A stretch of 64,000 nucleotides of DNA from Owenia fusiformis. Its lineage: Eukaryota; Annelida; Polychaeta; Sabellida; Oweniidae. The notes under the pieces are model-generated. The model had not been told where the DNA came from. It searched no databases and was given only the letters and a program-made list of their open reading frames with translations. The position numbers were made by a program, and so were the translations under genes. The DNA lies in NCBI GenBank assembly GCA_903813345.2, contig CAIIXF020000002.1:10040650-10104649 (forward strand), written 5' to 3'. Shown here in pieces: positions 13,196 to 18,889 of this stretch (the first letter of the stretch is position 1; each line of letters opens with the position of its first letter).

Positions 13196-13201
13196 GATGT
13201 T
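13196..13201. repeat. 6-bp target-site duplication, left (GATGTT)
   Basis: GATGTT immediately precedes the terminal AGTAGTATAC and is repeated exactly after the right end at 18,884-18,889. Confidence 0.85.
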
Positions 13202-13352
13202 AGTAGTATACGGCGGGCCTTTCGACCCCCTACCGGCACCGGTACTTACACTTACACCGGAAGTTACACTTACACCGGAAGTGACGTCATAGGTCATGTG
13301 TTGGAAGTGACGTCATAGGTCACGTGTTCCTTACACTTACACCTGGTGACAT
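13202..13352. promoter_or_regulatory. Terminal motif cluster: ETS-like, CRE-like, E-box
   Basis: Within about 150 bp of the tip, CACTTACACC occurs three times, twice extended to CACTTACACCGGAAGT (GGAAGT is an ETS-type core). GAAGTGACGTCATAGGTCA occurs twice (TGACGTCA is the CRE/ATF palindrome), and CACGTG once. The mirrored cluster lies at about 18,733-18,883. Binding is inferred from motif match only; such motifs at viral-type termini could act in replication as well as transcription. Confidence 0.55.
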
Positions 13353-13360
13353 AACTGGCT

Positions 13361-14040
13361 CAAAGGTTACTGATAATTGATAAGAGAGTGGTTAAGTGAT
13401 GATAAGCTATCTGTCTACTTCATGGATGTTTCATTGTTATAGGTCAAAGGTTGATAACAAACTGATAAAACAGTGAAAAAGATAACTGCACAACAATTTC
13501 GACCAATCACATGGCTGTAATATATCAATTTGACCAATTATATTTGACACATACTTCATAGGTTGTATAAGCTGTAGAACCATCATGCCACTTTATATCA
13601 CTGGTCAAAGGTTACTGATAATTGATAAGAGAGTGGTTAAGTGATGATAAGCTATCTGTCTACTTCATGGATGTTTCATTGTTATAGGTCAAAGGTTGAT
13701 AACAAACTGATAAAACAGTGAAAAAGATAACTGCACAACAATTTCGACCAATCACATGGCTGTAATATATCAATTTGACCAATTATATTTGACACATACT
13801 TCATAGGTTGTATAAGCTGTAGAACCATCATGCCACTTTATATCACTGGTCAAAGGTTACTGATAATTGGTGCAAGATCAAGGGTTTCTGATAACTGATA
13901 AGATATTCAAACAAACACTGTTAAGGTAACCTGGTGACTATGTGATAAGCTATCTTGTCTACTTCATGGATGTTTCATTGTTATAGGTCAAAGGTGGATA
14001 ACAAACTGATAAAACAGTAAAAAAGATAACTGCAGAACCA
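13361..14040. repeat. 245-bp tandem repeat in the left arm
   Basis: CAAAGGTTACTGATAATTGA starts at 13,361, 13,606 and 13,851, exactly 245 bp apart. The third copy is degenerate. Each unit carries several TGATAA (GATA-type) words and AGGTCAAAGGTTGA, which resembles a DR1 nuclear-receptor site. Confidence 0.85.
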
Positions 14041-14079
14041 TTTCATTCAAACAGGTTTTAACTTGCAGAATTATGTTAA

Positions 14080-14290
14080 CCAGTCAGAGATAAGTATATT
14101 TAACCAATCAGGTTTGAGATGCAGAATCATTTTAACCAATCAGGAAACGGTATGTTTGGACTATTTTAACCAATCGCAGATCCATTTCAACCAATCGGGG
14201 TACAGTATGTTTGGATCATTTTAAACAACCGAGATGCAGTATATTCTCATCCAATCAGATATAAGAAAATCACCCAATAGCAGCATTTTT
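14080..14290. repeat. Spaced array of ACCAATC motifs (left arm)
   Basis: ACCAATC or close variants recur about every 28-35 bp through this stretch, often as TTTAACCAATC. The same array is mirrored in the right arm at about 17,795-18,005. The pattern suits NF-Y-type CCAAT boxes or iteron-like sites. Confidence 0.6.
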
Positions 14291-14805
14291 GCATCATTTC
14301 ACCAGTTCAGACCGGTATGGAAGTTTTATAACCAACAAGTCTCCTGACATTTTTTCACCAAACGGTCACTGTATTCTTACTCCCGAGTCATTTTAGAGCA
14401 TTTCTACAATCTTCACGCTTGAGTGATTTTGGGTGATTTCTGGAGTTTGAGGCATTATTTCACCAAACGATCACTTGATTCTTTCTCCTAAGTCATTTAA
14501 GAGTATTTTTTCAGTCATCATGGTTGAGTGATTTCGGTTACGCTTGATCAATTTCTGCTAATTTATGGAGTTTAAGGCATTTTCACAAAAAAAGACACCC
14601 ACCCACTTTACAAAATAACACGCGTTAATAGGCATCTGTTAATTTAACATGCCACTGATAAAAATACAAACCCCTACAAGATAGATAAAAAATGCTAACA
14701 TTAACAGTTTTAACAGCGAAACATTTTCGACCAATCAAAGTGTATATTCAAACGAACAGCTGAACCATTTCAATCAATAAGATCAGATTATTGCACTCTT
14801 TGACC

Positions 14806-14989
14806 CCGCCGCCACCACCACCGCCGCCACCACCACCGCCGCCACCACCACCACCGCCGCCGCCGCCGCCACCACCACCGCCACCACCGCCGCCGCCACC
14901 ACCACCGCCACCACCACCGCCACCACCACCGCCGCCACCACCACCGCCACCGCCGCCGCCACCACCACCGCCGCCACCACCACCACCGC
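14806..14989. repeat. CCG/CCA triplet repeat at the inner edge of the left arm
   Basis: About 180 bp of mixed CCG and CCA triplets. Translated long poly-Pro, poly-Val or poly-Arg/Trp frames are artefacts of the repeat. The inverted repeat similarity ends in it. Confidence 0.9.
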
Positions 14990-15004
14990 ATATTAATGTT
15001 TTGA

Positions 15005-15012
15005 TATAAAAG
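15005..15012 (+). promoter_or_regulatory. TATA box of the ATPase gene
   Basis: TATAAAAG lies 60 nt before the ATG at 15,065. A TTCAGT initiator-like sequence is about 30 nt downstream (about 15,037-15,042), the usual TATA-to-start spacing. The promoter sits just inside the left inverted repeat. Confidence 0.6.
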
Positions 15013-15064
15013 TGAAAAGCAGACTTGATTCATTCATTCAGTGCAACCTCATCTACGTGGCAAC

Positions 15065-16495
15065 ATGGATTACATTTGCTCTTTGTGTTCTGGTACATTT
15101 GCCAGGAAGGATAGTCTTCTGAGACATATGAAAAACATGCACAAAAAAGATGAGACTAATTTTGATCTTGACTCACCTATACAGTTCAGGCATCCCTTTA
15201 CTAAAATTGTCGCAGGTCCGACTGGATGTGGAAAGACAACCTATGTTGTCAACCTTATTGATAGAGCTGAACAATTTATCAAACCACGGCCACAAAGGAT
15301 AGTATGGTTCTTCAAACAATGGCAGCCTTTGTATGCAGAAATAAAGAGAAAACAGCCTCATATCGAGTTTGTTATGGGTCTTTGTGATGACTTGATGAAC
15401 CCGGATTACTTCGATGAGAATGTGACCAATTTGGTTGTGATAGATGACCTAATGGCGGACTTAAGCAAGGCAGTTACATTGCTATACACAGCTGGTTCTC
15501 ATCACAAAAATATATCCATTATCACGCTACAACAAAATATTTTCCCACCCAATGGAGAAAGCAGGACAATGAGCTTAAACAGCCATTACTTGGTATTATT
15601 CAAGAACCCGAGGGATCAAAGACAGATAAGTGTTTTGGCATCTCAAATGTATCCTGGAAAGACATATACTTTGCTCGACATTTACAGACAAGCTACGGAA
15701 AATCCATTTGGTTACTTAGTGGTGGATCTGAAGCAAGAAACTGAAGATGGTTCGAGGCTGAAGCCTAATGCATTGCAGCAAGTTGTAGAAAGTGATCCAT
15801 ATACATCATTTCAACATTTTTATAACACGGCAGGAAGCTCAACTGCTCAACAAAGGCAAGATATGACGGAATTCCGACCAAATACCATTGTTCAACCAAG
15901 TCAGATGGTGGCTACATATCCAGGTCCAATGGATGATATTACTCTAAGAAACCCCTCCATTTTGCATCTCCCCCATTGTAAAGACTGTGGCACAGTGTTG
16001 ATTACCACAAAACATACAGACATTCATCAAAAATATTGCCAATATGGAGATACTGATAAGAATAAACCCCATGCTGAAGATTTGAAGGAAAATTATACAT
16101 TTTCTACTCTGAAGCAGAATGTGATCGGTGTATTGAAAAATGAAGCTGACACTTTATATGAAAAATACACTAACAAGGGATTACCGGAGAAAGAAATCAC
16201 CCAAAAGCTTAAAGCAAAACTTTATCCCAAAGCAAAATCTGAGTTTTTAAATGATTATGGTGAAATTCTGAGGTTATTCATTGAAGTCAAAGATGCTGAT
16301 TTACATCGAGAAATTGTAGAAGAAATTGAATTCTTAGTTGATCAAGACATATCTCTGTCGAGAGCCATCAGAAAAACTTTGGCCAAATATTCTTATATCG
16401 CTGATGAAATGTTTAACGATGAAGAGTCTATTGACGGAAGTGATTTAGAAGATGCAGATACATCTAGTGAGATGGAAGAAGACGAACGTAGTTAG
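15065..16495 (+). CDS. Packaging-type P-loop ATPase with N-terminal C2H2 zinc finger (476 aa)
   Basis: Predicted function: NTPase of the HerA/FtsK-like type that pumps viral or Polinton DNA into capsids. Seen: an N-terminal C2H2 finger (C5-x2-C8-x12-H21-x4-H26); the HPFTKIVAGPTGCGKT block with Walker A at 51-58; Walker B LVVIDDL at 123-129; GSHHKNISIITLQQN and LVLFKNPRDQ blocks typical of this family; a second zinc-binding-like motif C305-x2-C308 with H321-x3-C325; and an acidic C-terminal tail (EEDERS). Start choice: the frame opens upstream at a GTG, but the first ATG (15,065) begins directly with the finger and follows a TATA/initiator. The gene is intact and single-exon, and is the larger of only two genes in the element. 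The P-loop family call is firm. The packaging role rests on family resemblance and the Polinton-like ends, not on a search. Confidence 0.85.
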   Translation: MDYICSLCSGTFARKDSLLRHMKNMHKKDETNFDLDSPIQFRHPFTKIVAGPTGCGKTTYVVNLIDRAEQFIKPRPQRIVWFFKQWQPLYAEIKRKQPHIEFVMGLCDDLMNPDYFDENVTNLVVIDDLMADLSKAVTLLYTAGSHHKNISIITLQQNIFPPNGESRTMSLNSHYLVLFKNPRDQRQISVLASQMYPGKTYTLLDIYRQATENPFGYLVVDLKQETEDGSRLKPNALQQVVESDPYTSFQHFYNTAGSSTAQQRQDMTEFRPNTIVQPSQMVATYPGPMDDITLRNPSILHLPHCKDCGTVLITTKHTDIHQKYCQYGDTDKNKPHAEDLKENYTFSTLKQNVIGVLKNEADTLYEKYTNKGLPEKEITQKLKAKLYPKAKSEFLNDYGEILRLFIEVKDADLHREIVEEIEFLVDQDISLSRAIRKTLAKYSYIADEMFNDEESIDGSDLEDADTSSEMEEDERS

Positions 16496-16520
16496 ATTTC
16501 ATGAATGAATGTTTGATGAG

Positions 16521-16530
16521 TATATAAAGG
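16521..16530 (+). promoter_or_regulatory. TATA box of the 131-aa gene
   Basis: TATATAAAGG lies 61 nt before the ATG at 16,582. An initiator-like TCAGAT is at about 16,550, again about 30 nt downstream. The layout copies that of the ATPase promoter. Confidence 0.6.
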
Positions 16531-16581
16531 GAAACCTTGGACATTAGCATCAGATAATTAATAGAAGAGGAAGAAGCAACA

Positions 16582-16977
16582 ATGCCTAAGATAGTGCCTT
16601 ATGTGGACAACCCAGAAGTGTGGAAGAAGTTTATACGAGCCCAAGTAGAAGGCAGAGTCATCGAACATGCTGGATATGGTAAACGAGGAAAACTCAAGTG
16701 GATACCAGTGTCATCAGTCCATGAACCGATTGTTCAACATATCAGTCCCACTGAAGCTGTTTATCAGAGAGCCAAGGCAGAAATTGACAAGCAGCAGAAA
16801 GAAATAGGCGAACGGGATAGGCCACCCAAGAGAGTTTACAGACAAATGAGTGACAATGATTCCTTTGACCACACCTCCAATGGAAGTGTGATGAATAGAC
16901 TTTTTAAAAAACCTAAGAAAAAGAGGGATGTTATGGTGTATTCTGGCCCTCCTGGAAAACGTCAACACAGACAGTGA
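16582..16977 (+). CDS. Small basic protein of the Polinton-like element (131 aa), unknown function
   Basis: I do not recognise the family. The protein starts MPKIVPYVDNPEVWKKFIRA and contains a Gly/Lys-rich turn (GYGKRGKLKW) near residue 32. It ends in a strongly basic tail with a nuclear-localisation-like PKKKRD near residues 112-117 and GKRQHRQ at the C-terminus. It has its own TATA box 86 bp after the ATPase stop and a poly(A) signal downstream. Small size, basic tail and position beside a packaging ATPase suggest a DNA-binding or core-like protein, but this is inference. The frame is intact and codon use looks ordinary. Confidence 0.75.
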   Translation: MPKIVPYVDNPEVWKKFIRAQVEGRVIEHAGYGKRGKLKWIPVSSVHEPIVQHISPTEAVYQRAKAEIDKQQKEIGERDRPPKRVYRQMSDNDSFDHTSNGSVMNRLFKKPKKKRDVMVYSGPPGKRQHRQ

Positions 16978-17033
16978 ATCCCTCATCCACAAGGGACTAT
17001 GAAATAATTTGTATAAATGAAAATATGTGTATT

Positions 17034-17039
17034 AATAAA
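17034..17039 (+). terminator. Poly(A) signal AATAAA
   Basis: AATAAA lies 57 nt after the stop of the 131-aa gene and just before the right inverted repeat. No AATAAA lies between the ATPase stop and the second gene, so both transcripts may share this site. Confidence 0.6.
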
Positions 17040-17106
17040 CTACTATAGCACTAAAATACATTTTTATTGTTGTTGGGGTTGTTGTTGTCGATAGTTGTGG
17101 CACCGA

Positions 17107-17281
17107 GGCGGCGGTGGTGGCGGCGGTGGTGGTGGTGGCAGTGGTGGTGGTGGCGGTGGTGGTGGCGGCGGTGGTGGCGGCGGTGGTGGCGGTGGTGGTG
17201 GCGGCGGCGGTGGTGGCGGTGGTGGTGGCGGTGGTGGTGGTGGCGGCGGTGGTGGTGGCGGCGGTGGTGGTGGCGGCGGGG
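17107..17281. repeat. CGG/TGG triplet repeat at the inner edge of the right arm
   Basis: Inverted counterpart of 14,806-14,989, G-rich on the plus strand. The two arrays differ slightly in length and triplet order, as expected of microsatellites. Confidence 0.9.
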
Positions 17282-18044
17282 TCAAAGAGTGCAATAATCT
17301 GATCTTATTGATTGAAATGGTTCAGCTGCTCATTTGAATATACACTTTGATTGGTCGAAAATGTTTCGCTGTTAAAACTGTTAATGTTAGCATTTTTTCA
17401 TCTATCTTGTAGGGGTTTGTATTTTTATCAGTGGCATGTTAAATTAACAGATGCCTATTAACGCGTGTTATTTTGTAAAGTGGGTGGGTGTCTTTTTTGT
17501 GAAAATGCCTTAAACTCCATAAATTAGCAGAAATTGATCAAGCGTAACCGAAATCACTCAACCATGATGACTGAAAAAATACTCTTAAATGACTTAGGAG
17601 AAAGAATCAAGTGATCGTTTGGTGAAATAATGCCTCAAACTCCAGAAATCACCCAAAATCACTCAAGCGTGAAGATTGTAGAAATGCTCTAAAATGACTC
17701 GGGAGTAAGAATACAGTGACCGTTTGGTGAAAAAATGTCAGGAGACTTGTTGGTTATAAAACTTCCATACCGGTCTGAACTGGTGAAATGATGCAAAAAT
17801 GCTGCTATTGGGTGATTTTCTTATATCTGATTGGATGAGAATATACTGCATCTCGGTTGTTTAAAATGATCCAAACATACTGTACCCCGATTGGTTGAAA
17901 TGGATCTGCGATTGGTTAAAATAGTCCAAACATACCATTTCCTGATTGGTTAAAATGATTCTGCATCTCAAACCTGATTGGTTAAATATACTTATCTCTG
18001 ACTGGTTAACATAATTCTGCAAGTTAAAACCTGTTTGAATGAAA

Positions 18045-18724
18045 TGGTTCTGCAGTTATCTTTTTTACTGTTTTATCAGTTTGTTATCCACCTTTGACCT
18101 ATAACAATGAAACATCCATGAAGTAGACAAGATAGCTTATCACATAGTCACCAGGTTACCTTAACAGTGTTTGTTTGAATATCTTATCAGTTATCAGAAA
18201 CCCTTGATCTTGCACCAATTATCAGTAACCTTTGACCAGTGATATAAAGTGGCATGATGGTTCTACAGCTTATACAACCTATGAAGTATGTGTCAAATAT
18301 AATTGGTCAAATTGATATATTACAGCCATGTGATTGGTCGAAATTGTTGTGCAGTTATCTTTTTCACTGTTTTATCAGTTTGTTATCAACCTTTGACCTA
18401 TAACAATGAAACATCCATGAAGTAGACAGATAGCTTATCATCACTTAACCACTCTCTTATCAATTATCAGTAACCTTTGACCAGTGATATAAAGTGGCAT
18501 GATGGTTCTACAGCTTATACAACCTATGAAGTATGTGTCAAATATAATTGGTCAAATTGATATATTACAGCCATGTGATTGGTCGAAATTGTTGTGCAGT
18601 TATCTTTTTCACTGTTTTATCAGTTTGTTATCAACCTTTGACCTATAACAATGAAACATCCATGAAGTAGACAGATAGCTTATCATCACTTAACCACTCT
18701 CTTATCAATTATCAGTAACCTTTG
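18045..18724. repeat. 245-bp tandem repeat in the right arm
   Basis: Mirror image of the left array: boundaries at 18,234, 18,479 and 18,724 are 245 bp apart, with the degenerate copy innermost. Confidence 0.85.
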
Positions 18725-18883
18725 AGCCAGTTATGTCACCAGGTGTAAGTGTAAGGAACACGTGACCTATGACGTCACTTCAAACACATGACCTATGACG
18801 TCACTTCCGGTGTAAGTGTAACTTCCGGTGTAAGTGTAAGTACCGGTGCCGGTAGGGGGTCGAAAGGCCCGCCGTATACTACT

Positions 18884-18889
18884 GATGTT
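18884..18889. repeat. 6-bp target-site duplication, right (GATGTT)
   Basis: Exact partner of the left copy at 13,196-13,201; it directly follows the terminal GTATACTACT. Confidence 0.85.

What the first reader, a model, noticed from the sequence alone, without database searches (positions are those of the whole stretch)
13202..18883. Miniature Polinton-like element that keeps only a packaging ATPase and one small basic protein
The element is complete: ends beginning AG, 6-bp target duplication GATGTT, and 1.78-kb inverted repeats with only scattered differences in the stretches compared. Its two genes are intact. Yet polymerase, integrase, protease and capsid genes are absent. Retaining the ATPase in an otherwise stripped element is unexpected for a simple deletion derivative. 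It suggests a satellite or parasite that supplies its own packaging motor while borrowing replication, integration and capsid from a helper.
Basis: partly seen in the sequence, partly recalled or inferred. Interest (0 to 1): 0.9.

Follow-up and report, generated by a model that had tools for sequence, protein, structure and literature searches.

The report
Polinton satellite with own packaging motor
In what appears to be the genome of a marine worm, a small jumping element lacks every gene for copying, inserting and wrapping itself, yet keeps working genes for a virus-type DNA-packaging motor and a small basic protein, which suggests that it lives as a satellite of larger virus-like elements with matching ends.

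Summary
Confirmed and extended. Window 13202-18883 is a complete 5,682-bp element: 6-bp target duplication, long inverted repeats (outer 1,391 nt identical), two intact genes. The host is probably the annelid Owenia fusiformis. It is not a stray deletion: 19 loci carry this ATPase at 87% identity or more, all with the small gene beside it (partial in two) and none with a capsid-gene match within 12 kb. Ten of ten further elements checked have their own 6-bp duplication. Both genes show purifying selection (median dN/dS 0.22 and 0.15). A full-length Polinton shares the ends (repeat 95% over 534 nt) and the small gene, which there sits beside the capsid gene; it and three loci of the same capsid type carry a different, short ATPase. 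So the mini-element is a mosaic. Genome-wide, 45 of 47 short-type ATPase matches lie near a capsid match, but only 22 of 87 zinc-finger-type loci do. The modelled fold best matches viral packaging ATPases. Best reading: a satellite of Polintons that brings its own motor and a capsid-associated basic protein and borrows polymerase, integrase and capsid. Expression, particles and helper dependence are untested.

The parts
13196..13201 (.). left copy of the 6-bp target duplication GATGTT
   Evidence: read directly
13202..14978 (+). left terminal inverted repeat, about 1.78 kb; outer 1,391 nt identical to the right arm; holds two tandem 245-bp units and a CCN array at its inner end
   Evidence: homologous to termini of the full-length Polinton C12:33251975-33267133
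15065..16495 (+). 476-aa ATPase: N-terminal C2H2 finger, FtsK/HerA-type packaging ATPase core (P-loop GPTGCGKT, Walker B IDD), second CxxC-type finger, helical C-terminal domain
   Evidence: conserved columns in 49 sequences: the window's and 48 relatives; model; fold matches to adenovirus IVa2, A32-like, adintovirus and virophage ATPases
16582..16977 (+). 131-aa basic protein; the first ~75 residues are conserved with a protein encoded beside the capsid gene of Polintons in this genome, the tail is its own
17107..18883 (-). right terminal inverted repeat
18884..18889 (.). right copy of the 6-bp target duplication GATGTT
   Evidence: read directly

Best explanation
A transmissible satellite of Polintons (Maverick viruses/transposons). 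It keeps the terminal repeats that a Polinton polymerase and integrase act on, so it can be copied and inserted in trans. It encodes two virion-related proteins of its own: a zinc-finger packaging ATPase and a small basic protein related to one encoded beside the capsid gene of full-length Polintons. Inferred mechanism: when a Polinton is active in the same cell, its polymerase copies the satellite from the shared repeats. The satellite's ATPase, perhaps choosing the DNA through its zinc finger, loads satellite DNA into helper capsids, with the basic protein joining DNA to capsid through its conserved N-terminal part. The helper's integrase (or one carried in the particle) inserts it with a 6-bp duplication. 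Shown: complete mobile element, multicopy family, purifying selection on both genes, ends homologous to and recombining with those of Polintons, packaging-ATPase-like fold. Inferred: helper dependence, packaging, particles.
For: Mobility: perfect 6-bp duplications at the window element, at one full-length Polinton (ATTTGG) and at 10 of 10 other paired-repeat elements, all with AGTAGTAT...ATACTACT ends; the ten were chosen because one search matched both their ends from the first base. Gene retention: 19 of 19 family ATPase loci have a match to the basic gene within 4 kb (two of them partial) and none has a capsid match within 12 kb. Selection: ATPase median dN/dS 0.22 in the 74 of 105 pairs with dS above 0.02, from 15 of the 19 loci; basic protein 0.149 in 121 of 153 pairs, from 18 copies; fixed ATPase codon differences between two subfamilies 28 synonymous to 22 nonsynonymous, p 2.7e-8 against neutral. 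Helper candidates: four loci with 97-100% identical capsid protein and a relative of the basic protein; the one read in full has a capsid-size protein, a weakly matched adenain-like protease, an integrase with rve and chromo domains above cut-off, an ATPase, and interrupted polymerase-like frames. Repeat exchange: 95% over 534 nt with C12 and 97% over about 580 nt with C138, while the basic gene is only 84% identical over 221 nt. Motor not from these: all four carry the short ATPase at 94-100%, 35% identical in the core to the window's and outside the zinc-finger clade in the tree. Genome-wide 45 of 47 short-type matches lie within 12 kb of a capsid match against 22 of 87 zinc-finger-type loci. 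Packaging fold.
Against: No expression, virion or excision data. The one helper candidate read in full has its polymerase split into several frames, and none of the pieces tested matched a PolB profile; the other three were not read in full and their repeats were seen for C138 only, at one side. Only four loci have this capsid type against 19 gene-bearing minis, so the present helper may be another Polinton. It is not obvious that an ATPase of another lineage fits this capsid. The model's pTM is 0.54; PDB fold matches are generic RecA/FtsK-like with low TM-scores, and the viral matches have query TM-scores of about 0.3. Among nearly identical copies nonsynonymous changes are often as many as or more than synonymous ones, and singletons run 31 synonymous to 46 nonsynonymous, so many copies are probably inert after insertion. 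Six of the 19 ATPase loci are damaged or partial: two with one stop, one matching 1-391 only, one 26-473 only, two split. The tree does not rule out a single origin of the mini-elements.
Confidence: 0.62

Rival explanations
1. Ordinary non-autonomous deletion derivative: a Polinton lost most genes by chance and the two genes remain by accident, spread in trans through the repeats.
For: Some family elements look gene-less: 4 of the 10 whose ends were read show no listed ATPase or basic-gene match between their ends. Capsid-bearing elements with zinc-finger ATPases exist (22 of 87 loci), so an ancestor with that ATPase is possible.
Against: Purifying selection on both genes; 19 of 19 ATPase loci have the pair; all four loci with the matching capsid type carry a different ATPase, so the mini is not a deletion of them; the same two genes recur in another capsid-less family (L091) and in a tandem pair on C139 (L031).
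Confidence: 0.12
2. The ATPase serves a step other than packaging, for example recognising the element ends, target choice, replication or partition, and the element never enters a capsid.
For: N-terminal C2H2 finger and a helical C-terminal domain beyond the minimal motor; FtsK/HerA relatives also serve partition and defence (recalled); no capsid or protease gene is kept.
Against: Most of the best named viral fold matches are packaging ATPases; the partner protein is related to one found within 0.7 kb of the capsid gene at 37 of 81 capsid loci; zinc-finger ATPases also occur in capsid-bearing elements, and with one exception not together with a short one.
Confidence: 0.16
3. An interfering element kept because it blocks Polinton packaging to the host's benefit, as proposed for virophages and Polinton-like viruses against giant viruses.
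For: Virion-type genes without a replication module; near-identical copies with intact genes; repeats shared with putative helpers.
Against: Many copies at different insertion sites fit selfish spread; fixation and host regulation were not tested.
Confidence: 0.07

Closest known systems
Polintons / Mavericks (polintoviruses, adintoviruses)
   Same: 6-bp target duplication, long terminal inverted repeats, packaging-type ATPase, homologous ends, and a basic protein found beside the capsid gene in members of the same genome
   Different: 5.7 kb instead of 15-20 kb; no PolB, integrase, protease or capsid gene; another ATPase type than the Polintons that match its ends. Krupovic et al. 2014 (PMC4028283, passages) report that nine Polintons without capsid genes lacked ATPase and protease too, which they read as concerted loss, the opposite of this pattern
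Virophages and Polinton-like viruses acting as satellites of giant viruses
   Same: small, integrating, with a packaging ATPase of the same broad family, dependent on a larger virus
   Different: they encode their own capsid; this element has none and its presumed helper is a Polinton (virophage features recalled)
Phage satellites that redirect packaging (PICI, P4-like; recalled)
   Same: works-like: satellite brings a packaging-specificity component and uses helper capsids
   Different: bacterial, unrelated proteins; hijacking shown there, only inferred here
MITEs / non-autonomous deletion derivatives
   Same: short, repeats shared with a full-length element, mobilised in trans; apparently gene-less relatives occur in the same family
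   Different: two intact genes under purifying selection, one of them absent from the matching full-length element

Membership tests
Polinton / Maverick (autonomous) | long terminal inverted repeats with 6-bp target duplication | tested here: met
   10 of 10 further elements
Polinton / Maverick (autonomous) | protein-primed PolB | tested here: not met
   no such frame in the element; PF03175 gives 11 matches in the genome, none here (that profile misses other polymerases of this genome)
Polinton / Maverick (autonomous) | RVE integrase | tested here: not met
   no such frame among those listed in the element; the genome was not searched with an integrase profile
Polinton / Maverick (autonomous) | double jelly-roll capsid protein and adenain-like protease | tested here: not met
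   no capsid match within the element; no protease frame among those listed
Polinton / Maverick (autonomous) | FtsK/A32-like packaging ATPase | tested here: met
   fold and relatives with Pox_A32 domains; the Pfam matches of the window protein itself are just below cut-off
Satellite of a Polinton | larger element with homologous ends in the same genome | tested here: met
   C12:33251975-33267133, read in two parts; three more loci with the same capsid type and short ATPase, of which C138 showed a matching repeat
Satellite of a Polinton | own genes maintained by selection | tested here: met
Satellite of a Polinton | needs the helper to replicate and to form particles | not testable with these tools
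   no expression, particle or mobilisation data
Simple deletion derivative (MITE-like) | internal sequence contained in the matching full-length element | tested here: not met
   the four loci with the matching capsid type carry a short ATPase at 94-100%; no zinc-finger ATPase match is listed in the C12 element
Virophage | encodes its own major capsid protein | tested here: not met

The most novel reading that the evidence does not exclude
A class of animal virus satellites: elements without capsid, polymerase or integrase that parasitise Polintons by carrying a packaging motor of a different lineage plus a capsid-associated basic protein. They occur as several families in one worm genome and exchange terminal repeats with their helpers, and the zinc-finger ATPase lineage is the satellite-prone motor (45 of 47 short-type matches lie near a capsid match, only 22 of 87 zinc-finger loci do).
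Probability: 0.5. Interest if true: 0.93.

Novelty: new variant of a known kind. Interest (0 to 1): 0.82.

Why it matters
Polinton particles have long been inferred from their genes, with little direct proof. A satellite under selection to keep a packaging ATPase, but nothing for replication or integration, is hard to explain unless DNA packaging by Polintons really matters for their spread in an animal. It makes that question testable: look for mini-element DNA in particles. It also extends packaging-hijacking satellites, well known in phages, to virus-like elements of animals, and identifies an ATPase lineage found both in full-length elements and in satellites.

Tried and rejected
Led nowhere: two viral-contig scans, one with the ATPase and one with a 49-sequence profile, gave no confirmed relative. 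The basic protein has no significant Pfam or PHROGs match and no homolog beyond Owenia-named proteins and one unnamed protein on a 1,475-base contig; its model is poor (mean pLDDT 58.5). PF03175 detects only some polymerases here, and six polymerase-like pieces gave no PolB match in Pfam, so polymerase naming at C12 and L032 rests on position and recalled motifs. The capsid protein has no Pfam family and no significant PDB sequence match; its naming rests on gene order, size and recalled motifs. Two planned searches did not complete: whether the second mini family (L091) shares repeats with a full-length Polinton, and where else the C12 polymerase piece occurs.

Considered and rejected: that C2:22071649-22094653 is a full-length element. 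It is a mini-element whose basic gene is split (residues 1-85 and 87-131 about 17.5 kb apart) by other DNA. That the zinc-finger ATPase is unique to satellites: no, 22 of 87 loci have a capsid match within 12 kb, some with integrase or polymerase-like frames alongside. That L091 is a complete element with a target duplication: its right end lacks the last bases of the presumed left end, so that is unproven.

Limits: 20 of the 65 zinc-finger loci without a capsid match also lack a basic-gene match within 4 kb; they may be Polintons with a capsid too diverged to detect. Leaving them out, 22 of 67 have a capsid match. The 87 loci come from 89 rows (of 120 matches); the other 31 rows, second halves of matches listed lower down, were left out by hand. 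One search shows further ATPases that one search did not list. Counts are lower bounds because the search scores only its best candidates. The 47 short-type matches were picked by hand from the 150 by open-frame length and identity, and include a 71-residue fragment (C8:1039515). In one search, 31 of 105 ATPase pairs and 32 of 153 basic-gene pairs with dS below 0.02 were left out of the medians, and the split basic gene L057 was not used. The tree tool warned of a long branch for the short ATPase: it falls outside the zinc-finger clade but its exact place is unsure. The host name is inferred from proteins named Owenia fusiformis whose contigs have the lengths of C5, C2 and C138; no call names the genome.
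Full report
What is there. The window holds a complete 5,682-bp element at 13202-18883. Its ends read AGTAGTATAC...GTATACTACT and it is flanked by GATGTT on both sides. The outer 1,391 nt of the arms are 100% complementary, and a further inner stretch, largely CCN/GGN arrays, is 93% complementary. Between the arms lie two uninterrupted frames: a 476-aa ATPase (15065-16495) and a 131-aa basic protein (16582-16977). No polymerase, integrase, protease or capsid gene was found.

Where. The window is G000:C2:10040650-10104649 of a 498-Mb assembly. Relatives of the 131-aa protein are named Owenia fusiformis, with longest contigs of 42,456,855, 35,751,742 and 25,000 bases, the lengths of C5, C2 and C138. 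The host is therefore very probably this annelid; no call names the genome.

A family, not a freak. A search of the genome with the left repeat gave 218 matches, many as inverted pairs a few kb apart. Ten further elements, chosen because both ends matched from the first base, were read at both ends: all ten begin AGTAGTAT, end ATACTACT and have a perfect and different 6-bp duplication. By the coordinates, six of them carry both genes (the ATPase match is partial in two) and four show no listed match to either. Nineteen ATPase loci of this family were found at 87% identity or more. All 19 have a basic-gene match within 4 kb, partial at C2:22090835 (residues 1-85) and C10:21852795 (1-119), and none has a capsid match within 12 kb. 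Thirteen of the 19 match over residues 1-474 or more without a stop; the other six are interrupted, partial or split.

Selection. Among 15 near-complete ATPase copies, the 74 of 105 pairs with dS above 0.02 have median dN/dS 0.22 (range 0.115-0.428). Among 18 basic-gene copies, 121 of 153 pairs have median 0.149 (range 0.051-0.914). Between the two ATPase subfamilies, 28 fixed codon differences are synonymous and 22 nonsynonymous, against about 1:4 in sites (p 2.7e-8). Singletons within subfamilies are 31:46, nearer neutral but still below expectation (p 4.5e-5); the difference between the two ratios is not significant (p 0.10). Among nearly identical copies nonsynonymous changes are often as many as or more than synonymous ones, as expected if single copies decay while the lineage is selected. 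Both genes have therefore been needed while the family spread.

A Polinton with matching ends. C12:33251975-33267133 is a 15.2-kb Polinton with ends AGTAGTAT...ATACTACT and duplication ATTTGG. It encodes, in order, several small proteins, a 116-aa relative of the window's basic protein, a 447-aa capsid protein, a 149-aa protease (adenain match below the Pfam cut-off), a 381-aa integrase (rve and chromo above cut-off), a 220-aa ATPase, and on the other strand interrupted polymerase-like frames. Capsid and polymerase naming rests on gene order, size and recalled motifs. Its repeat matches the window's at 95% over 534 nt and about 75% over the stretch nearest the end. Three more loci have the same capsid type at 97-99% with a relative of the basic protein beside it; they were not read in full. 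One of them, C138, matches the window's repeat at 97% over about 580 nt. The basic gene is only 84% identical to that of C12 over 221 nt. Non-coding repeats that are more alike than a conserved gene point to recent exchange of ends between mini-element and Polinton. Exchange also shows among minis: one copy (C2:584657-591253) matches the window's outer 423 nt at 99-100% and much of the inner repeat at 69%, with an ATPase 98% identical.

A mosaic with another motor. All four loci with the matching capsid type carry the short ATPase (94-100%), which is 35% identical in the core to the window's ATPase. In the tree it lies outside the zinc-finger clade, on a long branch whose exact place is unsure. 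The window's type has a C2H2 finger before and a second finger and helical domain after the motor, and has relatives in other animals, named ones from Pinctada, Mytilus and Actinostola. The nine zinc-finger families sampled from this genome, with two unnamed database proteins, form one clade (100/98) that mixes capsid-bearing and capsid-less elements; one or several origins of the minis cannot be told. So the mini-element joins ends and a basic gene like those of one Polinton type to a motor of another lineage.

A genome-wide pattern. Of 47 short-type ATPase matches, 45 have a capsid match within 12 kb; of 87 zinc-finger loci only 22 do (Fisher p 3e-16, copies not independent). Of the 65 without, 45 have a basic-gene match within 4 kb (19 of this family, 26 of others) and 20 do not. 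Of the 22 zinc-finger loci with a capsid match, one also has a short ATPase within 15 kb, at C5:15554141, where a second Polinton lies close by. A second mini family was read (L091): one basic gene and one zinc-finger ATPase, convergent, between long inverted repeats; its exact right end is not settled. A further pair, intact on C139 and broken on C3, has ATPase and basic gene in tandem as in the window.

What the proteins are. The ATPase model (mean pLDDT 81, pTM 0.54) has adenovirus IVa2, A32-like packaging ATPases, an adintovirus FtsK-like protein and Sputnik V3 among its best named matches in the viral library (E about 1e-8 to 1e-7, query TM-score about 0.3). PDB matches are generic RecA/FtsK/HerA folds with low TM-scores. 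Pfam gives Adeno_IVa2 and Pox_A32 just below cut-off. The Walker residues are invariant or nearly so in 49 sequences. The basic protein's first ~75 residues are conserved with those of Polintons while its tail is different. At 37 of 81 capsid loci a relative lies within 0.7 kb of the capsid gene. In adenovirus (recalled) the small core proteins X and VI sit just before hexon and protease, so a core or capsid-associated role is likely but unproven; the model is poor.

How it most likely works. Shared repeats allow a Polinton's polymerase and integrase to act on it. Its own ATPase and basic protein then bias packaging of its DNA into Polinton capsids. Replication in trans, packaging and particles are inferred. 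That the best-matching Polinton copy has interrupted polymerase frames shows that the present helper is not settled; polymerase frames of 1,475 and 1,485 aa without stops exist near other capsid loci (C8, C9).

Novelty. Eight literature searches listed no paper whose title or abstract opening describes satellites or gene-bearing non-autonomous forms of Polintons; the last, for six exact phrases, found no paper. I saw listings and abstract openings, plus passages of PMC11071296, PMC6431247 and PMC4028283. Krupovic et al. 2014 report nine Polintons without capsid genes that also lacked ATPase and protease; the retained ATPase here is the reverse. Repbase and subscription papers were not searched, so non-autonomous Polintons may be described there.

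Noticed in passing
G000:C10:22415978-22424082 (L015, L016, L047, L048): Two mini-elements lie in opposite orientation with adjoining ends and identical ATPase and basic genes: an inverted dimer, perhaps a replication intermediate that was inserted, or an assembly artefact.
   Followed up: partly
G000:C2:22071649-22094653 (L006, L019, L057): A mini-element whose basic gene is split by about 17.5 kb of unidentified DNA.
   Followed up: partly
G000: C1:21999400, C6:19982928, C12:24101715, C10:14050110, C9:20776860, C7:2566029, C2:22060012: Seven pairs of basic-protein genes in inverted orientation 1.7-3.0 kb apart without a listed ATPase match: possibly even smaller elements with the gene inside both repeats.
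   Followed up: no
P0088 (Mytilus), P0108: Zinc-finger ATPases whose C-terminus looks like an adenain-type protease (by eye), i.e. a motor-protease fusion.
   Followed up: no
window 13277-13328 and L069:1448-1467: TGACGTCA (CRE-like, recalled) in GGAAGTGACGTCATAGGTCA just inside the ends of both mini-element and full-length Polinton; tandem in the mini-element.
   Followed up: no
window 14806-14989 and 17107-17279: CCN/GGN arrays at the inner ends of the repeats, the left one upstream of the ATPase start; several ATPases of other animals have proline runs between finger and motor (P0015, P0021, P0054).
   Followed up: no
G000: 20 loci such as C3:13028496, C2:31065316, C10:15008576: Zinc-finger ATPases with neither a capsid nor a basic-gene match nearby; either further mini families or Polintons with very diverged capsids.
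   Followed up: partly
P0004, P0010, P0018 and others: Zinc-finger ATPase clusters with up to 113 member sequences from unnamed sources: the family seems highly amplified elsewhere too.
   Followed up: no
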